A stretch of 6,579 bases of DNA. Origin: DASVDK01 sp036381125 [NCBI: Thermodesulfobacteriota bacterium] (GTDB taxonomy: Bacteria > DASVDK01). A program made the translations under genes and the position numbers. The notes under the pieces were generated by a model that was not told the origin of the DNA, made no database searches, and worked only from the letters and a program-made list of their open reading frames with translations. The number at the start of each line of letters is the position of its first letter. Position 1 is the stretch's first letter. The stretch lies in the NCBI GenBank assembly GCA_036381125.1, contig DASVDK010000279.1:1-6579 (forward strand), read 5' to 3'. Below, in pieces: positions 3 to 6,579 of the stretch.

Positions 3-965
3 TGGAAGGCCGTCTGCCGGGTGACGATGCTCGGGCTCGCCGCCGCGGCGGTCGCGGCGGCCCCGCTCGCCGCCGACGCCGCGGAGTCGTTCCCGAGCAA
101 GCCGATCGTGATCTACGTCGGCTCGGCGGCGGGATCGCCCGTCGACCTGTACGCCAGGAAGATCGCCAAGCTGGCCGAGCCGTACCTCAAGGTCCCGGTC
201 CAGGTCCAGAACCGGGAGGGGGGCAGCTCCACGATCGCGATGTCGGCCATGCTCGCCCAGCCGGCCGACGGCTACACGCTCTACGGCGCGACCCGATCGA
301 TCACGACGGTGCTCGTCGAGCGCGACACGGGGTTCACGGTCGAGGACTTCGCCTACATCGTCCGCAGCCAGGTCGACCCGTTCGTCTTCGCCGTGCCGGG
401 GTCGAGCCCGTTCAAGACGCTCGAGGAGTTCGTGGCGGCGGCGAAGCGGCAGCCGGGCAAGTTCAAGGTCGCCGGCTTCGGCAGCGGGACGCCGCACCAC
501 ATCGCGATGCAGCGCTTCGCGCAGGTCGCCGGCTTCACGTACGGCTGGATCCCCTACGACGGCGGCAGCGCCGCCACCGCCGCGGCGATGGGGGGACACG
601 TCGACGCCGTCATGACCAACCCGGGGCAGCTCCGGGGCAAGGGGAACCGAATCCGCGGGCTCGCCGTCACCAACCCGGAACGCATCCCGAGCTTCCCCGA
701 CATCCCCACGATGCGCGAGCTCGGCTACCCGGTGACCGATCTCCACTGGCGCGGCCTGGTGACGAAGAAGGGGGTTCCGGCCGACAGGCTCGAGATCCTC
801 CACCAGGCCTTCAAGAAGGCGATGGAGACGAAGGAATGGGAAGACTTCACCGAGCAGCAGGGGCAGCTCAGCGGCTACCTCGATCCGAAGGCGTTCATGC
901 AGGCGGCGATCGAGGACACGATCGACGCCAGGGCGATGCTGCAGCGGTTCGGGCTGATCAAGTAG
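3..965 (+). CDS. tctC: Tripartite tricarboxylate transporter substrate-binding protein (TctC/Bug family), 5' end outside window
   Basis: Periplasmic solute receptor that captures a carboxylate and delivers it to the TctAB membrane pair. The frame is open to the left edge. A GTG at 21 could start it, but the codons before it add Lys and Arg (WKAVCRV) ahead of the hydrophobic stretch, as in a signal-peptide n-region, so the true start probably lies just upstream. The signal peptide would end near the Ala-rich ADAAES. The mature part carries family landmarks: FPSKPI at the mature N terminus, GSPVDLYARK (ligand-loop Asp), VQNREGGSS, ADGYTLY, a GGHVDAVMTN segment, and LAVTNPERIPSFPDIPT near the C-terminal lobe. 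About 320 codons are visible, close to the usual 320-330, so little is missing. The ligand loop reads AGSPVD rather than the commoner PGGxxD, which may mark a different ligand. Family assignment is secure; the substrate cannot be read from sequence. tctB and tctA follow. Confidence 0.93.
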   Translation, partial: WKAVCRVTMLGLAAAAVAAAPLAADAAESFPSKPIVIYVGSAAGSPVDLYARKIAKLAEPYLKVPVQVQNREGGSSTIAMSAMLAQPADGYTLYGATRSITTVLVERDTGFTVEDFAYIVRSQVDPFVFAVPGSSPFKTLEEFVAAAKRQPGKFKVAGFGSGTPHHIAMQRFAQVAGFTYGWIPYDGGSAATAAAMGGHVDAVMTNPGQLRGKGNRIRGLAVTNPERIPSFPDIPTMRELGYPVTDLHWRGLVTKKGVPADRLEILHQAFKKAMETKEWEDFTEQQGQLSGYLDPKAFMQAAIEDTIDARAMLQRFGLIK

Positions 966-1459: not shown

Positions 1460-2986
1460 ATGTCGATCGTCGACGCGCTCGCCCAGGGGGCCCAGGTCGC
1501 GCTGGCGCCGATCAACCTGTTCTACTGTCTTCTCGGCGTCACGCTCGGCAACATCGTGGGGATCCTTCCGGGGATCGGACCCGCCACCGGCATCGCCCTG
1601 CTCATCCCGGTCACGATGTCCATGCCGGCGGAGTCGGCCATCATCATGCTCGCCGGGATCTACTACGGATCCAAGTACGGCGGCGCCATCACCTCGATCC
1701 TGCTCCGGACGCCCGGCGAAAGCTCTTCCGTGATGACCTCCGTCGACGGCTACGAGCTTGCGCGGCGGGGCAGGGCGGGCCCGGCGCTCGGCATGGCGGC
1801 CTTCGCCTCGTTCATCGCGGGGACCGCGAGCGTCGTGCTCCTCATGCTCCTGGCGCCGCGTCTGGCGGAGGTCGCCCTGGCCTTCGGGCCGGCGGAGTTC
1901 TTCGCCCTCATGATGCTCGGCCTCGCGGCGACGGCGTCGCTGTCGGGCGGCAGCCTCGCCAGGGGGGTCCTCGCGACCCTCGTCGGGCTCGCCCTCTCGA
2001 CGGTCGGCCTCGACATCATCACCGGGCAGCCGCGCTACCCGCTCGGCCGGTTCGAGCTGCTCGAGGGAATCGACTTCCTCGTCGTGGCGCTCGGCCTCTT
2101 CGGAATCCCCGAGGTCCTCGACACGATCCGGTGCGGCGCCATCGAGCCGGTGCGGACGAAGTACGGGCGCCTCGCCGGCCTCCTGCCCGCGCGCGACGAC
2201 TGGCGGCGGAGCGCCCTGCCGCTCGGACGCTCGACGCTGCTCGGTTTCGCGGTCGGCGTCCTGCCGGGCGTCGGCTCCATCATTGCCTCGTTCCTCGCGT
2301 ACGCGACCGAGCGGGCCCTCGCCCGCGAGCCGGGGCGCTTCGGCAACGGTGCGATCGAGGCGGTTGCCGCGGCGGAGTCGGCCGACAACGCGGCGGTGAA
2401 CGGCTCGCTCGTGCCGCTGCTCACCCTCGGCATCCCCGGTTCCGCGTCGACGGCCATCCTGACCGGTGCGCTCCTCATGTTCGGCCTCACGCCGGGGCCG
2501 CTCCTCTTCGAGACCAACCCCGACTTCGTGTGGGGCCTGATCGCGAGCCTCTACATCGGCAACGTGCTGCTCCTGCTCCTCAACATCCCGCTGATCGGCC
2601 TCTTCGTGCAGATCACCCGGCTGCCGTTCGCCCTGATCGCCGTCCTCGTCTTCGTGCTGTCGGCCGTCGGCGCGTTCGCCGTGCACAACAACATCTTCCA
2701 CGTCTGGCTCCTGGTGATCTTCGGTGCGCTGGGCTACGCGATGCGCTGGGCCGGGCTTCCGCCGGCGCCCCTGATCCTCGCCCTCGTGCTCGGCAACGCG
2801 CTCGAGCAGAACTTCCGCCGCGCGCTCGCCATCACCGACGGCGACTACTCGGTCTTCGTCTCGCGGCCGCTGCCGGCCGCGCTCCTCCTCCTCGCGGTGC
2901 TCTTCGCGATCGGTCCGGCGATCCTGCAGCGGCATCGCGGGCGGGGCGAGGCGCCGGAGGCCGTGCCGGGCGAGGCCGGGGCATGA
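1460..2986 (+). CDS. tctA: Tripartite tricarboxylate transporter large permease subunit (TctA)
   Basis: Main membrane subunit of the TTT transporter, a secondary carrier that moves the carboxylate delivered by TctC. It has 508 residues, the usual family length of about 500, with many hydrophobic helices. The two-fold internal repeat of the family is visible: GILPGIG at 34-40 is echoed by GVLPGVG at 266-272, and the TPGESSS loop (84-90) by IPGSAS (325-330). Other signatures are YYGSKYGGAITSILL (68-82), TSVDGYELARRGRAGPALG (93-111), FGNGAIEAVAAAESADNAA (294-312) and a late LGNALEQNFRRAL (444-456). Residue 83 is Arg where I recall Asn as usual (ILLN-PG). The ATG at 1460 follows a weak GGACGGA ribosome site and fits the N terminus. 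The final TGA overlaps the next ATG as ATGA (2983-2986), implying translational coupling to the oxidoreductase gene. Substrate unknown. Confidence 0.96.
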   Translation: MSIVDALAQGAQVALAPINLFYCLLGVTLGNIVGILPGIGPATGIALLIPVTMSMPAESAIIMLAGIYYGSKYGGAITSILLRTPGESSSVMTSVDGYELARRGRAGPALGMAAFASFIAGTASVVLLMLLAPRLAEVALAFGPAEFFALMMLGLAATASLSGGSLARGVLATLVGLALSTVGLDIITGQPRYPLGRFELLEGIDFLVVALGLFGIPEVLDTIRCGAIEPVRTKYGRLAGLLPARDDWRRSALPLGRSTLLGFAVGVLPGVGSIIASFLAYATERALAREPGRFGNGAIEAVAAAESADNAAVNGSLVPLLTLGIPGSASTAILTGALLMFGLTPGPLLFETNPDFVWGLIASLYIGNVLLLLLNIPLIGLFVQITRLPFALIAVLVFVLSAVGAFAVHNNIFHVWLLVIFGALGYAMRWAGLPPAPLILALVLGNALEQNFRRALAITDGDYSVFVSRPLPAALLLLAVLFAIGPAILQRHRGRGEAPEAVPGEAGA

Positions 2987-4842
2987 CCGAGTCCCGCTGG
3001 CTCTCCGGCAACGAGGCGGTCGCGCGCGGGCTCCTCGACGCCGGCGCGCGGGTCGTCGCCGGGTACCCGGGAGGCCCGAGCGGCGAGGTGGTCGAGGAGG
3101 TCGCCCGGCTGGCCCTGGCCGGGGCGGCGGGCGAGGCGCCGCGCGTCGAGTGGTCGATGAACGAGCGCGTTGCCCTCGACGTCGCGGCCGGCGCCGCGAT
3201 GGCGGGCGTGCGCGCGGCCGCGGTGATGAAGCACTTCGGCCTCAACGTTGCGGCCGACGTGCTCCACTCGGTCAACGTGATGGGCGTCCCGCGGCTCGTG
3301 CTGATCGTCGGCGACGACCCGCAGGGGCACAGCTCGCACAACGAGCAGGACAGCCGACGGTACGCCGCCTTCGCGCAGGTCCCCTGCCTCGAGCCGGCGA
3401 CCCCCGAGGACGCCTACCGTGCAGTCGGGCTCGCGTTCCACCTGTCCGAGACGCTCGCGATCCCGGTCGTCGTGCGGCTGGTGACCTCCGTGTCGTACGC
3501 CGAGGGGCCGGCGCGGCTGCCGGGACCGGGTGAGACCTCCCTCCCGCCGGCGGGACCGCTCTGGACCGAGCACGGGTTCCACGGCCGGCCGGTCGTCGGC
3601 AACCACGTTCGCCTGTACCGGAAGACGGCCGACGCCGTCCGGGCGCTCGCGGCGCTCGGCGTGGCCCGGCGCTACGGGCCGGCGACCGGGGCGCTGGGAG
3701 TCGTCGCCTGCGGCGTCGGCCGGCCGATCGCGCTCGCCGCGCTGGCCGACGAGGGGTACCTGGACGCCGTTCCGGTCCTCGAGCCGGTCACGAGCTTCCC
3801 GCTGCCGGAGGAGGCCTGCCTCGCGTTCCTCCGCTCGGTCGGATCGGTCCTGGTCGTGGAGGAGACCGACCCGGTCGTCGAGGACGCGCTGCGGGAGCTG
3901 GCCCATCGGCACGGCGTCGCGACCCCCGTGCGCGGCAAGCGGGACGGCGCCATGCCGGTTGCCGGCGAGCTGGACGGCGCGGCCGTCGCGGCGGCCCTCC
4001 GGACGCTCCTCGCCCCGGACGGCGCGCCCGCGCCGCAGCGCCCCCGGCCGCCGGAGGCGCTGGCCGGCGCCCTCGTCGACCGCAGGTCGGTCACCGCGCC
4101 CGGGCACGCCCATCGGCTCTTCTTCTTCGCGCTCAGACAGGCGATGGCGAAGGCGGAGGCCGAGGGGCGGCGCGTCGTCGTCATGGGGGACGTCGGCGAG
4201 GCGCAGAAGAACGCCGGCCCGGTGATGTTCCTGCACGGGGCGATGGGCTCCGGGATCGGCTCGGCGCACGGCGCCGCCCTCGCCGACCCGGCCGCGATCC
4301 TCGTCGGCCTCTCGGGCGACGCCACGCTCTACTCCTTTGCCCTCCAGGGCGTCATGAACGTCCTCTACAACCACGGAAGCGCCGTCCTGCTCGTCGCGGA
4401 CAACCGGAGCATGGAGTCGAGCGGCGTCGACGTGACCCCGACGAGCGGCGCGAACCTCACCGGCGCCGCGCCCGCGTGGGACCCGGCGCCGACCCTCGCC
4501 GCGCTCGGCGCCAGGGTGTGGGAGGTCTCGTCGACCGATCTCGCGGCCGCCGCGGACGCGCTCGAGGCAGCGCTCTTCGGGACCCCCTCGGGGCTTCGCG
4601 TCGTCGTGGCGCGCGGCGAGGCCCTTCCGGCGCGCCTCGCGCAGCTGCGCGGGGCGGAGCCGCTCGCGGTCGACGCGCGGCGGTGCAGCGGCTGCCGCCT
4701 CTGCGTCGACCGGTTCGGCTGCCCGGCGATCCTCTGGACGGGCGAGCGCGCCGCCATCGCGCCGGCGCTCTGCGTCGGCTGCGGCGACTGCCGGCCGGTC
4801 TGCCCGGACGACGCCTTCGTGACCGCCGGGGTGCGGGCGTGA
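2983..4842 (+). CDS. IorA-like thiamine diphosphate-dependent 2-oxoacid:ferredoxin oxidoreductase alpha subunit, proximal-cluster cysteines missing
   Basis: Resembles the alpha subunit of indolepyruvate:ferredoxin oxidoreductase, which oxidatively decarboxylates aryl pyruvates to acyl-CoA in the cytoplasm. It has 619 residues in IorA domain order. The pyrimidine-binding domain has LSGNEAVARGLLDAG (7-21), GYPGGPSGEV (27-36), VEWSMNERVAL with E61 as the likely thiamine-activating Glu, and DDPQGHSSHNEQDSRRYA (111-128). The transketolase-C-like domain has LGVVACGVGRP (238-248) and VVEETDPVVEDAL (291-303). The thiamine pyrophosphate domain has GDATL to DN (445-474), matching the GDS...DN spacing of IorA. 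The C-terminal ferredoxin domain has cysteines at 568, 571, 574, 580 and 597, 600, 603, 607, enough for two [4Fe-4S] clusters. Oddity: the IorA motif C-x-G-C-PHR reads APGHAHR here (372-378), and GDIGC reads GDVGE (402-406), so the proximal-cluster ligands are gone. It starts by ATGA overlap with tctA and ends by GTGA overlap with its partner. Family is clear; reaction and substrate are uncertain. Confidence 0.9.
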   Translation: MTESRWLSGNEAVARGLLDAGARVVAGYPGGPSGEVVEEVARLALAGAAGEAPRVEWSMNERVALDVAAGAAMAGVRAAAVMKHFGLNVAADVLHSVNVMGVPRLVLIVGDDPQGHSSHNEQDSRRYAAFAQVPCLEPATPEDAYRAVGLAFHLSETLAIPVVVRLVTSVSYAEGPARLPGPGETSLPPAGPLWTEHGFHGRPVVGNHVRLYRKTADAVRALAALGVARRYGPATGALGVVACGVGRPIALAALADEGYLDAVPVLEPVTSFPLPEEACLAFLRSVGSVLVVEETDPVVEDALRELAHRHGVATPVRGKRDGAMPVAGELDGAAVAAALRTLLAPDGAPAPQRPRPPEALAGALVDRRSVTAPGHAHRLFFFALRQAMAKAEAEGRRVVVMGDVGEAQKNAGPVMFLHGAMGSGIGSAHGAALADPAAILVGLSGDATLYSFALQGVMNVLYNHGSAVLLVADNRSMESSGVDVTPTSGANLTGAAPAWDPAPTLAALGARVWEVSSTDLAAAADALEAALFGTPSGLRVVVARGEALPARLAQLRGAEPLAVDARRCSGCRLCVDRFGCPAILWTGERAAIAPALCVGCGDCRPVCPDDAFVTAGVRA

Positions 4843-5447
4843 CGCGGCCGGTGCGGCGGATCGTCTTCGCGTCGCTCGCCGGGCAGCCGGCCGCGGCGCT
4901 CGCGCGGGTGCTCGCCCGTGCGGCCGCCGAGGCCGGTCTCGCGCCGGCGCTCTGGGACCCGCACGCCGTCCGGCCTGGGGGGGTCGAGACCCACCTCGAT
5001 CTCGACGCCCGCTTCGCGAGCCCGAGGGTGGCGCCCGGGAGGTGCGACCTGGTGGTCGGGCTCGAGGTCCTCGAGGGGCTCCGCCAGGCGGCTCGCTTCT
5101 ACCGCCCGGGGATCCACCTCGGCCTGCTCGACGTCGTCGTCCCGCCGGTCGCCGTCGCCCACGGGGGCAAGCGGTACCCGGACGCCGACGCGCTCGCGCG
5201 CGAGCTGGCGGGGCAGGTCGCCGTCCACCGCCTCCCCGGGCCGGGCCGTGCCGGCGCGCCGGCCGAGCCGGTCCACCTCGCGTCGGTGCTCGGGCTCGTG
5301 GCCGGCCTCGCCGGGAGCCTCGACCACGAGGCGGTCCTCGGCGCCGCGCGCGCCGCCTTCCCCGACTGGCCGGAGGCCGACCTCGCCGCCGGCTACGCGG
5401 TCGGCCGGCGGGTCGCGGAGGGGGCTCGTACGGGGCCTACAAGGTAG
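4839..5447 (+). CDS. Diverged IorB-like (pyruvate ferredoxin/flavodoxin oxidoreductase gamma-domain) beta subunit
   Basis: Probable partner of the preceding IorA-like protein: 202 residues, the size of IorB, and starting with a GTG overlapping the upstream stop (GTGA, 4839-4842). The resemblance to the gamma domain of 2-oxoacid:ferredoxin oxidoreductases is in pattern rather than exact motifs. IVFASLAGQPAAALARVLA (8-26) stands where IorB has a Rossmann-like G-x-GGQG-x-L strand and helix. HAVRPGGVETHLDL (42-55) stands for the usual G-x-x-QRGG-x-V-x-S-H stretch, followed by SPRVAPGRCDLVVGLEVLEGLR (61-82), which is very like the IorB D-L-L-L-G-LEPLEALR segment. VVVPPVAVAHGGKRYPD (99-115) and HLASVLGLVAGLA (146-158) also align in order. 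The GGQG and QRGG cores and the usual VNM Asn are changed. No Fe-S motif is expected or seen. Gene position and pattern together support the call; alone it could be left as hypothetical. Confidence 0.8.
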   Translation: MTRPVRRIVFASLAGQPAAALARVLARAAAEAGLAPALWDPHAVRPGGVETHLDLDARFASPRVAPGRCDLVVGLEVLEGLRQAARFYRPGIHLGLLDVVVPPVAVAHGGKRYPDADALARELAGQVAVHRLPGPGRAGAPAEPVHLASVLGLVAGLAGSLDHEAVLGAARAAFPDWPEADLAAGYAVGRRVAEGARTGPTR

Positions 5448-5526: not shown

Positions 5527-6252
5527 ATGACCAGGCCGCTGCTCGTGCTCGTTCCTGGCCTGCTGTGCGACCGGGACCTCTGGCGCGACCAGATCCCGGC
5601 GCTGTCCTCCCTGGCGGAGGTCCAGGTCGCCGACCTCCGGCCCTTCGACTCGATCGCGGACATGGCCCGGTCGATCCTCGACGCCGCGCCGGGGGCCTTC
5701 GCGCTGGCCGGCCTGTCGATGGGGGGCTACGTGGCCCTCGAGGTGATGCGGCGCGCGCCCGGGCGGGTGACGCGGCTCGCGCTCCTCAACACGACGAGCC
5801 GCGCCGACACCGAGGCGCAGACCGCACGGAGGCGGCATCTCATGGCGCTCGCGGCCGCCGGCCGTTTCGGCGAGGTGATCGACGCCCTCGAGGGCGTTTT
5901 CCTCGGCGACCGCGCCCGTCGGGACCGGACGCTCGTCTCGCGCGTGCGGGAGATGGCGAGGCGCGTCGGTCCCGCGGCCTTCCTCCGGCAGCAGCGGGCG
6001 GTCATCGGCCGGCGTGACAGCGCCGACACCCTCCGGACGATCGCCTGCCCGACCCTCGTCGTCGCCGCGGCCGACGACGTCCTCATCCCCCCGGCCCTCC
6101 AGCAGGAGATGCACCGCCTCGTGCCCGGTTCGACGCTCCGGGTGATCGAGGACTGCGGGCATCTGTCGTCGATGGAGCGGCCCGACGAGGTGACGCAGGC
6201 GCTCGCGTCCTGGCTCGGCGGGCAGGCGGGAGGCGGCGCAGGTCACGTCTGA
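5527..6252 (+). CDS. Alpha/beta fold hydrolase
   Basis: A 241-residue serine hydrolase of the alpha/beta fold, the normal length for small esterase/lactonase-type members. The N terminus reads PLLVLVPGLLCDRDLW (4-19), with the oxyanion-hole region after strand 3. The nucleophile elbow is GLSMGG, with Ser64. The acid residue is in AADDVLIPP, most likely Asp184, and the base is His212 in EDCGHLSSMERPDEV. All three catalytic positions are present, so it should be active. A predicted cytoplasmic protein: no signal peptide. Between the elbow and the acid lies an Arg-rich helical cap segment (LLNTTSRADTEAQTARRR, then FLRQQRAVIGR). It resembles the broad group annotated as esterases, 3-oxoadipate enol-lactonase-like enzymes or MhpC-like C-C hydrolases; sequence alone does not choose among them. 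It lies 79 bases after the iorB-like gene on the same strand with its own ribosome site, so it may be cotranscribed or separate. A role with the transported carboxylate is possible but unproven. Confidence 0.93.
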   Translation: MTRPLLVLVPGLLCDRDLWRDQIPALSSLAEVQVADLRPFDSIADMARSILDAAPGAFALAGLSMGGYVALEVMRRAPGRVTRLALLNTTSRADTEAQTARRRHLMALAAAGRFGEVIDALEGVFLGDRARRDRTLVSRVREMARRVGPAAFLRQQRAVIGRRDSADTLRTIACPTLVVAAADDVLIPPALQQEMHRLVPGSTLRVIEDCGHLSSMERPDEVTQALASWLGGQAGGGAGHV

Positions 6253-6370: not shown

Positions 6371-6398
6371 CATCGATCCCCGCGTGCGCGGGGAAGAT
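6371..6398 (-). repeat. Degenerate terminal CRISPR repeat
   Basis: This unit differs from the consensus at five of 28 positions: CA for GG at its left end, T for C and G for A inside the core, and T for C at its last base. The stem arms remain complementary. Decay of the terminal repeat is typical of the trailer end and supports - strand transcription. Confidence 0.85.
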
Positions 6399-6579
6399 GC
6401 GGCAATACCGCCCGCGCCAACCGCGGCAATGGGTCGATCCCCGCGCGCACGGGGAAGACTACGGGCTCAACCCGTCGGACGAGCAGCGCGGCGGTCGATC
6501 CCCGCGCGCACGGGGAAGACGTTTATCCGGTCGAGCATCCGCAGATTGCCGCAGGTCGATCCCCGCGCGCACGGGGAAG
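6371..6579 (-). CRISPR. CRISPR array, type I-E-like repeat, trailer end (array continues past right edge)
   Basis: Four repeat units start at 6371, 6432, 6493 and 6554 with an exact 61-base period; the last is cut by the window edge after 26 bases. Units two and three match over 28 bases, unit four over its visible 26. The core on the + strand is CCCCGCGCGCACGGGG, preceded by GGTCGAT and followed by AAGAC. Three 33-base spacers lie at 6399-6431, 6460-6492 and 6521-6553 and are unrelated except for a shared octamer. The - strand repeat begins GTCTTCCCCG and has a GCGGGG stem end, matching the type I-E (Cas6e-processed) class, so crRNA is probably transcribed leftward. The leftmost repeat is degenerate, as expected at the leader-distal end, so the leader should be to the right. 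No cas gene lies in the window; the subtype rests on the repeat alone. Confidence 0.95.

What the first reader, a model, noticed from the sequence alone, without database searches (positions are those of the whole stretch)
4093..4200. IorA-like protein has lost all three proximal-cluster cysteines but keeps the thiamine site and ferredoxin domain
Seen: where IorA proteins carry C-x-G-C-PHR followed about 25 residues later by GDIGC, this protein has APGHAHR (372-378) and GDVGE (402-406); the flanking RLFFFALRQA and GD-x-G still align. Known: in pyruvate:ferredoxin oxidoreductase, the equivalent cysteines (812, 815 and 840 in Desulfovibrio africanus) bind the [4Fe-4S] cluster next to thiamine diphosphate. 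Inference: this cluster is absent or held by other ligands, which would break the usual electron path from thiamine to the ferredoxin domain. The enzyme may run a non-oxidative decarboxylation or carboligation, or use a different electron route. With the eight ferredoxin cysteines intact, this looks like a variant rather than decay.
Basis: partly seen in the sequence, partly recalled or inferred. Interest (0 to 1): 0.66.

Follow-up and report, generated by a model that had tools for sequence, protein, structure and literature searches.

The report
IorA-like enzyme lacking proximal iron-sulfur site
A bacterial gene pair resembling an iron-sulfur, thiamine-dependent oxidising enzyme has lost every ligand of the cluster that normally takes electrons from thiamine, and also its presumed coenzyme-A loop, while keeping the thiamine site and the outer ferredoxin domain, so it may do non-oxidative thiamine chemistry.

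Summary
The IorA-like protein (2983-4842, 619 aa) lacks not three but all four proximal-cluster cysteines (A372, H375, E406, A547). All four are kept in 61 of 61 IorA-type homologues examined, and residues 280-567 contain no cysteine. ThDP residues and all eight ferredoxin-domain cysteines remain. Divergence is concentrated in the ThDP/beta domain (25% mean identity, 45% among IorAs). The IorB-like partner has lost the GxGGQG loop of 35 of 35 IorBs (SLAGQP). In Sulfolobus OFOR the cluster is reported as needed for oxidative decarboxylation, while cluster and CoA are not needed for the non-oxidative reaction (PMC5020499, passages). Best reading: an OFOR-derived, redox-uncoupled ThDP lyase, decarboxylase or carboligase, probably co-operonic with a TctCBA importer; substrate unknown. 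Weaknesses: one sequence, no relative sharing the change found (narrow searches), homologue sample mostly archaeal, poor structure models, and no obvious reason to keep the ferredoxin domain. New variant of a known kind.

The parts
21..965 (+). TctC, solute-binding protein of a tripartite tricarboxylate transporter (frame open to the left edge, so the true start may lie outside)
   Evidence: Pfam TctC 138.5 bits
836..1450 (+). TctB small membrane subunit (ORF as listed; it overlaps TctC, and the true start was not determined)
   Evidence: Pfam TctB 69.1 bits over residues 60-199
1460..2986 (+). TctA permease; its last 4 nt overlap the IorA-like start (ATGA)
   Evidence: Pfam TctA 507.5 bits
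2983..4842 (+). IorA-like ThDP protein, 619 aa
   Evidence: TIGR03336 382.2 bits against a cut-off of 650.9; POR_N, TPP_enzyme_C, Fer4
3064..3078 (+). YPGGP: Thr of the YPxTP motif replaced by Gly31 (Thr in 61 of 61 homologues)
   Evidence: Thr binds the substrate carboxylate in StOFOR, PMC5020499 passages
3163..3165 (+). Glu61, catalytic Glu for ThDP activation, kept (61 of 61)
   Evidence: role of the OFOR equivalent in PMC5020499 passages
4096..4116 (+). APGHAHR (372-378) in place of CxGCPHR; two proximal-cluster ligands lost
4186..4200 (+). GDVGE (402-406) in place of GDIGC; third ligand lost
4315..4404 (+). GD(445-446)...DN(473-474) Mg/ThDP-diphosphate motif, kept (D446 in 59 of 61, N474 in 61 of 61)
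4417..4431 (+). SSGVD (479-483) in place of IorA MTGxQ; substrate-pocket positions changed (M479 aligns with StOFOR Leu123b, which the paper equates with PFOR Asn996)
   Evidence: (numbering counted along the printed alignment); PMC5020499 passages
4621..4623 (+). Ala547 at the fourth proximal-cluster ligand (Cys in 61 of 61)
4684..4803 (+). Two-cluster ferredoxin domain, all 8 Cys kept (568, 571, 574, 580, 597, 600, 603, 607)
4839..5447 (+). IorB-like (gamma) subunit, 202 aa, starts GTG overlapping the IorA stop by 4 nt
   Evidence: NF005322 42 bits against a cut-off of 237; Pfam POR 20.3 bits, below cut-off
4872..4889 (+). SLAGQP in place of GxGGQG (35 of 35 IorBs), presumed by position to be the CoA phosphate-binding loop of the gamma domain
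   Evidence: a P-loop of domain III binds CoA in M. thermoacetica PFOR as told in PMC8091585 passages
5527..6252 (+). alpha/beta hydrolase (Pfam Abhydrolase; PcaD-like NCBIfam scores below cut-off), possibly part of the same pathway

Best explanation
The gene pair encodes an OFOR/IorAB-derived thiamine diphosphate enzyme that has uncoupled from oxidation. Without the proximal [4Fe-4S] cluster and with an altered CoA loop, the carbanion/enamine formed on ThDP after decarboxylation (or C-C cleavage) is not oxidised. It is protonated to an aldehyde or added to another carbonyl (carboligation). The TctCBA system in the same apparent operon probably imports the carboxylate substrate, and the substrate pocket (T31G, M479S, T480S, Q483D) is retuned for something other than an aryl-pyruvate. 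The outer ferredoxin domain is kept for folding, assembly or oxygen sensing rather than for electron export. Shown here: loss of the four ligands, loss of the GxGGQG loop, retention of ThDP residues and of the 8 ferredoxin Cys, and gene overlaps. Inferred: non-oxidative catalysis, identity of the CoA loop, role of the ferredoxin domain, substrate class, operon.
For: Proximal Cys 0 of 4, against 4 of 4 in 61 of 61 homologues. No Cys in residues 280-567. ThDP residues E61, D446, N474 kept (homologues 61, 59 and 61 of 61). Identity loss is concentrated in the ThDP/beta domain (25.1% mean against 45.5% among IorAs, z -8.0; N-terminal domain 45.4 against 55.9; middle 31.0 against 35.4; ferredoxin domain 40.2 against 44.6). 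TIGR03336 scores that domain 53.7 bits, against 230.7-261.3 for 5 of 5 controls. IorB GxGGQG 35 of 35, SLAGQP here; GGQG is also seen in the four gamma-subunit chains printed. Published: cluster required for oxidative decarboxylation, cluster and CoA not required for non-oxidative decarboxylation to acetaldehyde in Sulfolobus OFOR (PMC5020499 passages; the primary paper, PubMed 24491525, is not held); a gamma-domain P-loop binds CoA (PMC8091585 passages). Overlapping gene ends TctA-IorA-IorB.
Against: All eight ferredoxin Cys are kept, which a purely non-redox enzyme should not need. No relative sharing the change was found, so conservation under selection is not shown. Both AlphaFold models are poor (pLDDT 59.8; 46.1). 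Resemblance to decarboxylase/lyase ThDP enzymes is not discriminating. In a single-sequence PDB search the window domain hits 2-hydroxyacyl-CoA lyase first (E 5e-4), while 3 of 3 control IorA domains hit an OFOR beta first (the last only at E 0.035). But in NCBIfam its second and third hits are OFOR beta families, and the IorA-dominated profile itself hits the ThDP enzyme CsmA first and many lyases and decarboxylases. Fold comparison ties OFORs and lyases. Altered pocket and loop residues could equally fit a non-catalytic protein.
Confidence: 0.45

Rival explanations
1. Still an oxidoreductase: electrons leave the ThDP adduct by another route (direct hop to the ferredoxin domain after domain rearrangement, another cofactor in the vacated site, or a non-Fd acceptor).
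For: Eight ferredoxin Cys kept; the ferredoxin domain is nearly as similar to IorAs as they are to each other (40.2 against 44.6%), so it looks constrained.
Against: The proximal Cys are kept in 61 of 61 homologues, including three that lack the ferredoxin domain, which suggests the proximal cluster is the indispensable one. The presumed CoA loop is altered too. The Pfam and NCBIfam scans (E up to 0.001) gave no clear sign of another redox cofactor domain; weak partial matches of the ferredoxin domain to larger redox enzymes were listed.
Confidence: 0.2
2. Non-catalytic or decaying remnant: a paralogue that lost activity and persists as a scaffold, or is on its way out.
For: 15 of 74 near-invariant IorA positions are lost, 12 of them in the ThDP/beta domain; the partner subunit lost 11 of 22 positions at least 90% conserved; no relative sharing the change found.
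Against: Intact overlapping frames, GC3 0.95-0.96 (neighbours 0.94-0.97), Cys codons changed by 2-3 bases each, ThDP and ferredoxin residues kept, divergence concentrated in one domain.
Confidence: 0.17
3. A proximal cluster is still present, held by non-Cys ligands (H375, H377, D403, E406) or by a partner protein.
For: His and Glu stand at two of the four ligand positions, and H377 and D403 are close by in the sequence.
Against: Two positions are Ala; there is no Cys in the domain and only one Cys (C69) in the IorB-like partner, at a column where 34 of 35 IorBs have Ala; an all-His/carboxylate [4Fe-4S] cluster would be unusual (general knowledge).
Confidence: 0.08
4. Ordinary IorA in a lineage where the motif is routinely variable (sampling artefact).
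For: The sample is mostly archaeal (54 of 61 by the phyla searched) and does not knowingly include the window's own, unidentified lineage.
Against: Cys at all four columns in 61 of 61, including the 7 plasmid records of Bacillota and Bacteroidota; flanks align well.
Confidence: 0.1

Closest known systems
Indolepyruvate:ferredoxin oxidoreductase IorA/IorB (TIGR03336 / TIGR03334)
   Same: Domain order, ThDP residues, C-terminal two-cluster ferredoxin domain, adjacent IorB-like gene, 29-37% identity over the full length
   Different: Below the curated cut-offs (382 of 651 bits; IorB 42 of 237 bits at best); all four proximal Cys, YPxTP Thr, MTGxQ pocket and IorB GxGGQG are lost
Two-subunit 2-oxoacid:ferredoxin oxidoreductase of Sulfolobus tokodaii (5b46-5b48)
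   Same: ThDP motifs align; its four beta-subunit Cys mark the lost positions; its cluster-Cys mutants are the laboratory counterpart of this natural variant (PMC5020499 passages)
   Different: Keeps only the proximal cluster and has no ferredoxin domain (PMC5020499 passages); the window protein keeps only the ferredoxin domain
Oxalate oxidoreductase (5c4i)
   Same: Also departs from YPxTP (Arg there, PMC5020499 passages; Gly here); best OFOR beta match of the isolated domain (E 0.022)
   Different: Has proximal, medial and distal clusters (PMC5020499 passages); the match is weak
2-hydroxyacyl-CoA lyase / acetolactate synthase type ThDP enzymes
   Same: Non-oxidative C-C chemistry without a cluster (general knowledge); first PDB match of the isolated ThDP domain (6xn8, E 5e-4)
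   Different: Single-chain enzymes without ferredoxin domain or gamma subunit (general knowledge); match is weak

Membership tests
IorA (TIGR03336 equivalog) | Whole-protein score at or above curated cut-off (650.9 bits) | tested here: not met
   382.2 bits
IorA (TIGR03336 equivalog) | Proximal [4Fe-4S] ligands CxxC, DIGC and fourth Cys | tested here: not met
   0 of 4, against 4 of 4 in 61 of 61 homologues
IorA (TIGR03336 equivalog) | ThDP-binding residues (Glu61, GD...DN) | tested here: met
IorA (TIGR03336 equivalog) | C-terminal 2x[4Fe-4S] ferredoxin domain | tested here: met
   8 of 8 Cys
IorA (TIGR03336 equivalog) | Adjacent IorB with GxGGQG loop | tested here: not met
   IorB-like gene present but below cut-offs and with SLAGQP
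IorA (TIGR03336 equivalog) | CoA-dependent oxidation of aryl-pyruvates with ferredoxin | not testable with these tools
   needs purified protein
2-oxoacid:ferredoxin oxidoreductase superfamily | YPxTP motif (not absolute: oxalate oxidoreductase has YPIRP) | tested here: not met
   YPGGP; Thr in 61 of 61 homologues
2-oxoacid:ferredoxin oxidoreductase superfamily | Overall fold and domain arrangement | tested here: inconclusive
   Low-confidence model (pLDDT 59.8): oxalate oxidoreductase 5c4i_D Z 21.9, rmsd 11.6 over 288; PFOR 6cin_B Z 21.8, rmsd 6.6 over 341; but lyase 8vzk_B Z 21.0, rmsd 14.3 over 295
2-hydroxyacyl-CoA lyase / acetolactate synthase group | Best family match by curated profile | tested here: not met
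   The isolated domain matches TIGR03336 best (1.1e-14); acetolactate synthase at 0.0014

The most novel reading that the evidence does not exclude
A natural OFOR that has shed exactly the two elements needed for oxidation (proximal cluster and CoA loop) and become a ferredoxin-domain-bearing, non-oxidative ThDP lyase or carboligase serving TTT-imported carboxylates. This is the reverse of the reduction seen in three Bacteroidota homologues and in Sulfolobus OFOR, which lack the ferredoxin domain and keep the proximal cluster.
Probability: 0.35. Interest if true: 0.7.

Novelty: new variant of a known kind. Interest (0 to 1): 0.5.

Why it matters
OFORs are textbook examples in which a cluster next to ThDP turns decarboxylation into ferredoxin reduction. 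A natural member without that cluster, but with the outer wire intact, would be an evolutionary version of the laboratory cysteine mutants. It would test whether non-oxidative ThDP enzymes can arise from OFORs, and what a stranded ferredoxin domain does. It also warns that a gene annotated IorA by similarity may not be an oxidoreductase.

Tried and rejected
Looked for close relatives: one scan of genome contigs (87 stretches matched a pattern) found 3 relatives, all archaeal IorAs at 32-33% with the Cys kept. Three scans of viral contigs found none. Plasmids gave 7 records with IorA-type proteins for the IorA-like query, all with the Cys kept, and none for the IorB-like query. The six 8-residue patterns can miss homologues, so absence is not shown. 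No whole genome is held for the window, so its lineage is unknown; the TctA matches among plasmids are all under 60% identity.

Domain-swap hypothesis (the ThDP domain taken from another family): rejected, because the isolated domain still matches TIGR03336 best. Resemblance to hydroxyacyl-CoA lyases and to oxalate oxidoreductase: kept only as weak leads, since controls do not separate them. Fold search: not decisive, since OFORs and lyases tie and the model is poor. Domain-only model: pLDDT 46, not used. The single-sequence PDB search with the IorB-like protein gave nothing.

Literature: ten searches; four of them returned no paper. In the listings of the others I saw no title or abstract on an IorA lacking the proximal cluster, or on IorA with TTT transporters. 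Passages only were read, of PMC5020499 and PMC8091585. Most subscription papers are not held.

Full report
What is there. The window (6579 bp, 74% GC) carries TctC, TctB and TctA of a tripartite tricarboxylate transporter, then an IorA-like gene (2983-4842), an IorB-like gene (4839-5447), an alpha/beta hydrolase (5527-6252) and the start of a CRISPR array. TctA and the IorA-like gene overlap by 4 nt, and so do the IorA-like and IorB-like genes, so they are probably co-transcribed and translationally coupled (inference from the sequence).

The observation. I aligned the protein first with 7 IorAs, then with 37, then with 61. The 61 are the 3 loci, 1, the 30 loci issued for the best matches of the Thermoproteota search (207 of 398 genomes matched at E up to 1e-30), the 20 loci issued by the Thermoplasmatota search (131 of 292 at E up to 1e-60), and all 7 plasmid records. 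So only the most window-like part of the archaeal matches was examined. Dropped before counting: L005-L007 as duplicates and L008 as a partial match; L009-L011 are not homologues. Positions 372, 375, 406 and 547 are Cys in 61 of 61, and Ala, His, Glu and Ala in the window protein. The profile of this domain aligns with the S. tokodaii OFOR2 beta chain (5b48_B) so that these columns meet its Cys12, Cys15, Cys46 and Cys197 (positions counted along the printed alignment). The paper names the Cys12-Cys15 CXGC loop as proximal-cluster ligand (PMC5020499 passages). The protein has 11 Cys in all: 135, 243, 279 and the eight of the ferredoxin domain, so no other cysteine of this chain lies in the domain.

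Not random decay. Of 74 columns at least 95% conserved in 37 IorAs, 59 are kept and 15 lost, 12 of the 15 in the ThDP/beta domain. The lost ones include all four cluster Cys, T31, Y407, S447, F449, M479, T480 and Q483. The kept ones include Glu61, D473, N474 and all eight ferredoxin Cys. Mean identity to IorAs falls to 25.1% in the ThDP/beta domain (IorAs among themselves 45.5%, z -8.0), against 45.4/55.9 in the N-terminal domain (z -3.1), 31.0/35.4 in the middle (z -1.9) and 40.2/44.6 in the ferredoxin domain (z -1.6). TIGR03336 gives this domain 53.7 bits, against 230.7-261.3 in 5 of 5 control IorAs. The Cys codons have become GCG, CAC, GAG and GCC, each 2-3 changes from any Cys codon, and GC3 is 0.95-0.96 in both subunits (neighbours 0.94-0.97). 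This fits long divergence under coding constraint; it does not prove selection, which needs close relatives.

The partner changed too. An IorB was found beside 35 of the 37 IorAs, and in 35 of these 35 the N-terminal loop is GxGGQG. Here it is SLAGQP, and the QRGG motif has lost its Gln and one Gly. Of 22 columns at least 90% conserved, 11 are lost. The IorB-like protein is 23.9% identical on average, against 36.9% among IorBs. GGQG appears in all four gamma-subunit chains of solved structures whose alignments were printed. A paper on T. kivui PFOR reports, citing the M. thermoacetica structure, that a phosphate-binding loop of the gamma domain (domain III) binds CoA (PMC8091585 passages; the structure paper itself is not held). 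That GxGGQG is this loop is my inference from position and sequence.

How it most likely works. In OFORs the proximal cluster takes electrons from the ThDP adduct and CoA then collects the acyl group (general knowledge). [quoted passage not shown] the primary paper (PubMed 24491525) is not held. The window enzyme has lost the cluster ligands and, by inference, the CoA loop, and kept the ThDP residues. The simplest reading is a redox-uncoupled decarboxylase, lyase or carboligase. Its substrate is probably not an aryl-pyruvate: the YPxTP Thr, which binds the substrate carboxylate in StOFOR, is Gly, and M479 (aligned with StOFOR Leu123, which the paper equates with PFOR Asn996, pocket residues) is Ser. 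The transporter suggests an imported carboxylate. Confidence 0.45.

What speaks against it. The ferredoxin domain keeps all eight Cys and near-normal similarity, which argues that its clusters still matter. Structural, assembly or oxygen-sensing roles are possible, and so is an unusual electron route. Three Bacteroidota homologues (L045, L047, L048) show the reverse loss: no ferredoxin domain in the chain, proximal Cys kept. No relative with the same change was found, but the search was narrow: one genome scan with six 8-residue patterns, three viral scans, plasmids, and two archaeal phyla. The bacterial part of the whole-genome set could not be reached without a handle. Models of the full chain (pLDDT 59.8) and of the ThDP domain (46.1) are too poor to show the site, and the fold comparison ties OFORs with 2-hydroxyacyl-CoA lyases. 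Sequence searches of the isolated domain lean to lyases in the PDB (3 of 3 controls lean to OFORs, one of them only at E 0.035). But they lean to OFOR beta families in NCBIfam, and the IorA-dominated profile itself matches CsmA best, so they do not decide.

Membership. By curated cut-offs and defining features it is not an IorA/IorB pair. It is best called an OFOR-derived, IorA-like ThDP protein lacking the proximal cluster. None of the ten literature searches listed a title or abstract describing such a protein. New variant of a known kind; interest 0.5.

Noticed in passing
window 6371-6579: Start of a CRISPR-like array: four repeat copies (GGTCGATCCCCGCGCGCACGGGGAAG type) at 61-nt period, first copy 82-85% like the others; the window ends at or inside a repeat.
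   Followed up: no
L045, L047, L048: Three Bacteroidota IorA-like proteins (about 540 aa) lack the whole ferredoxin domain but keep all four proximal Cys.
   Followed up: partly
window 5527-6252: alpha/beta hydrolase with PcaD-like (3-oxoadipate enol-lactonase) scores below cut-off, 79 bp downstream of the IorB-like gene; may belong to the same pathway.
   Followed up: no
L002 2046-3959 and its neighbours: Archaeal IorA with CAAC instead of CxGC and an atypical AGKHHGIAW segment, below the IorA cut-off (589.9 bits), next to IorB and a 710-aa ORF that by its sequence looks like an ADP-forming acyl-CoA synthetase (not run through a family scan).
   Followed up: no
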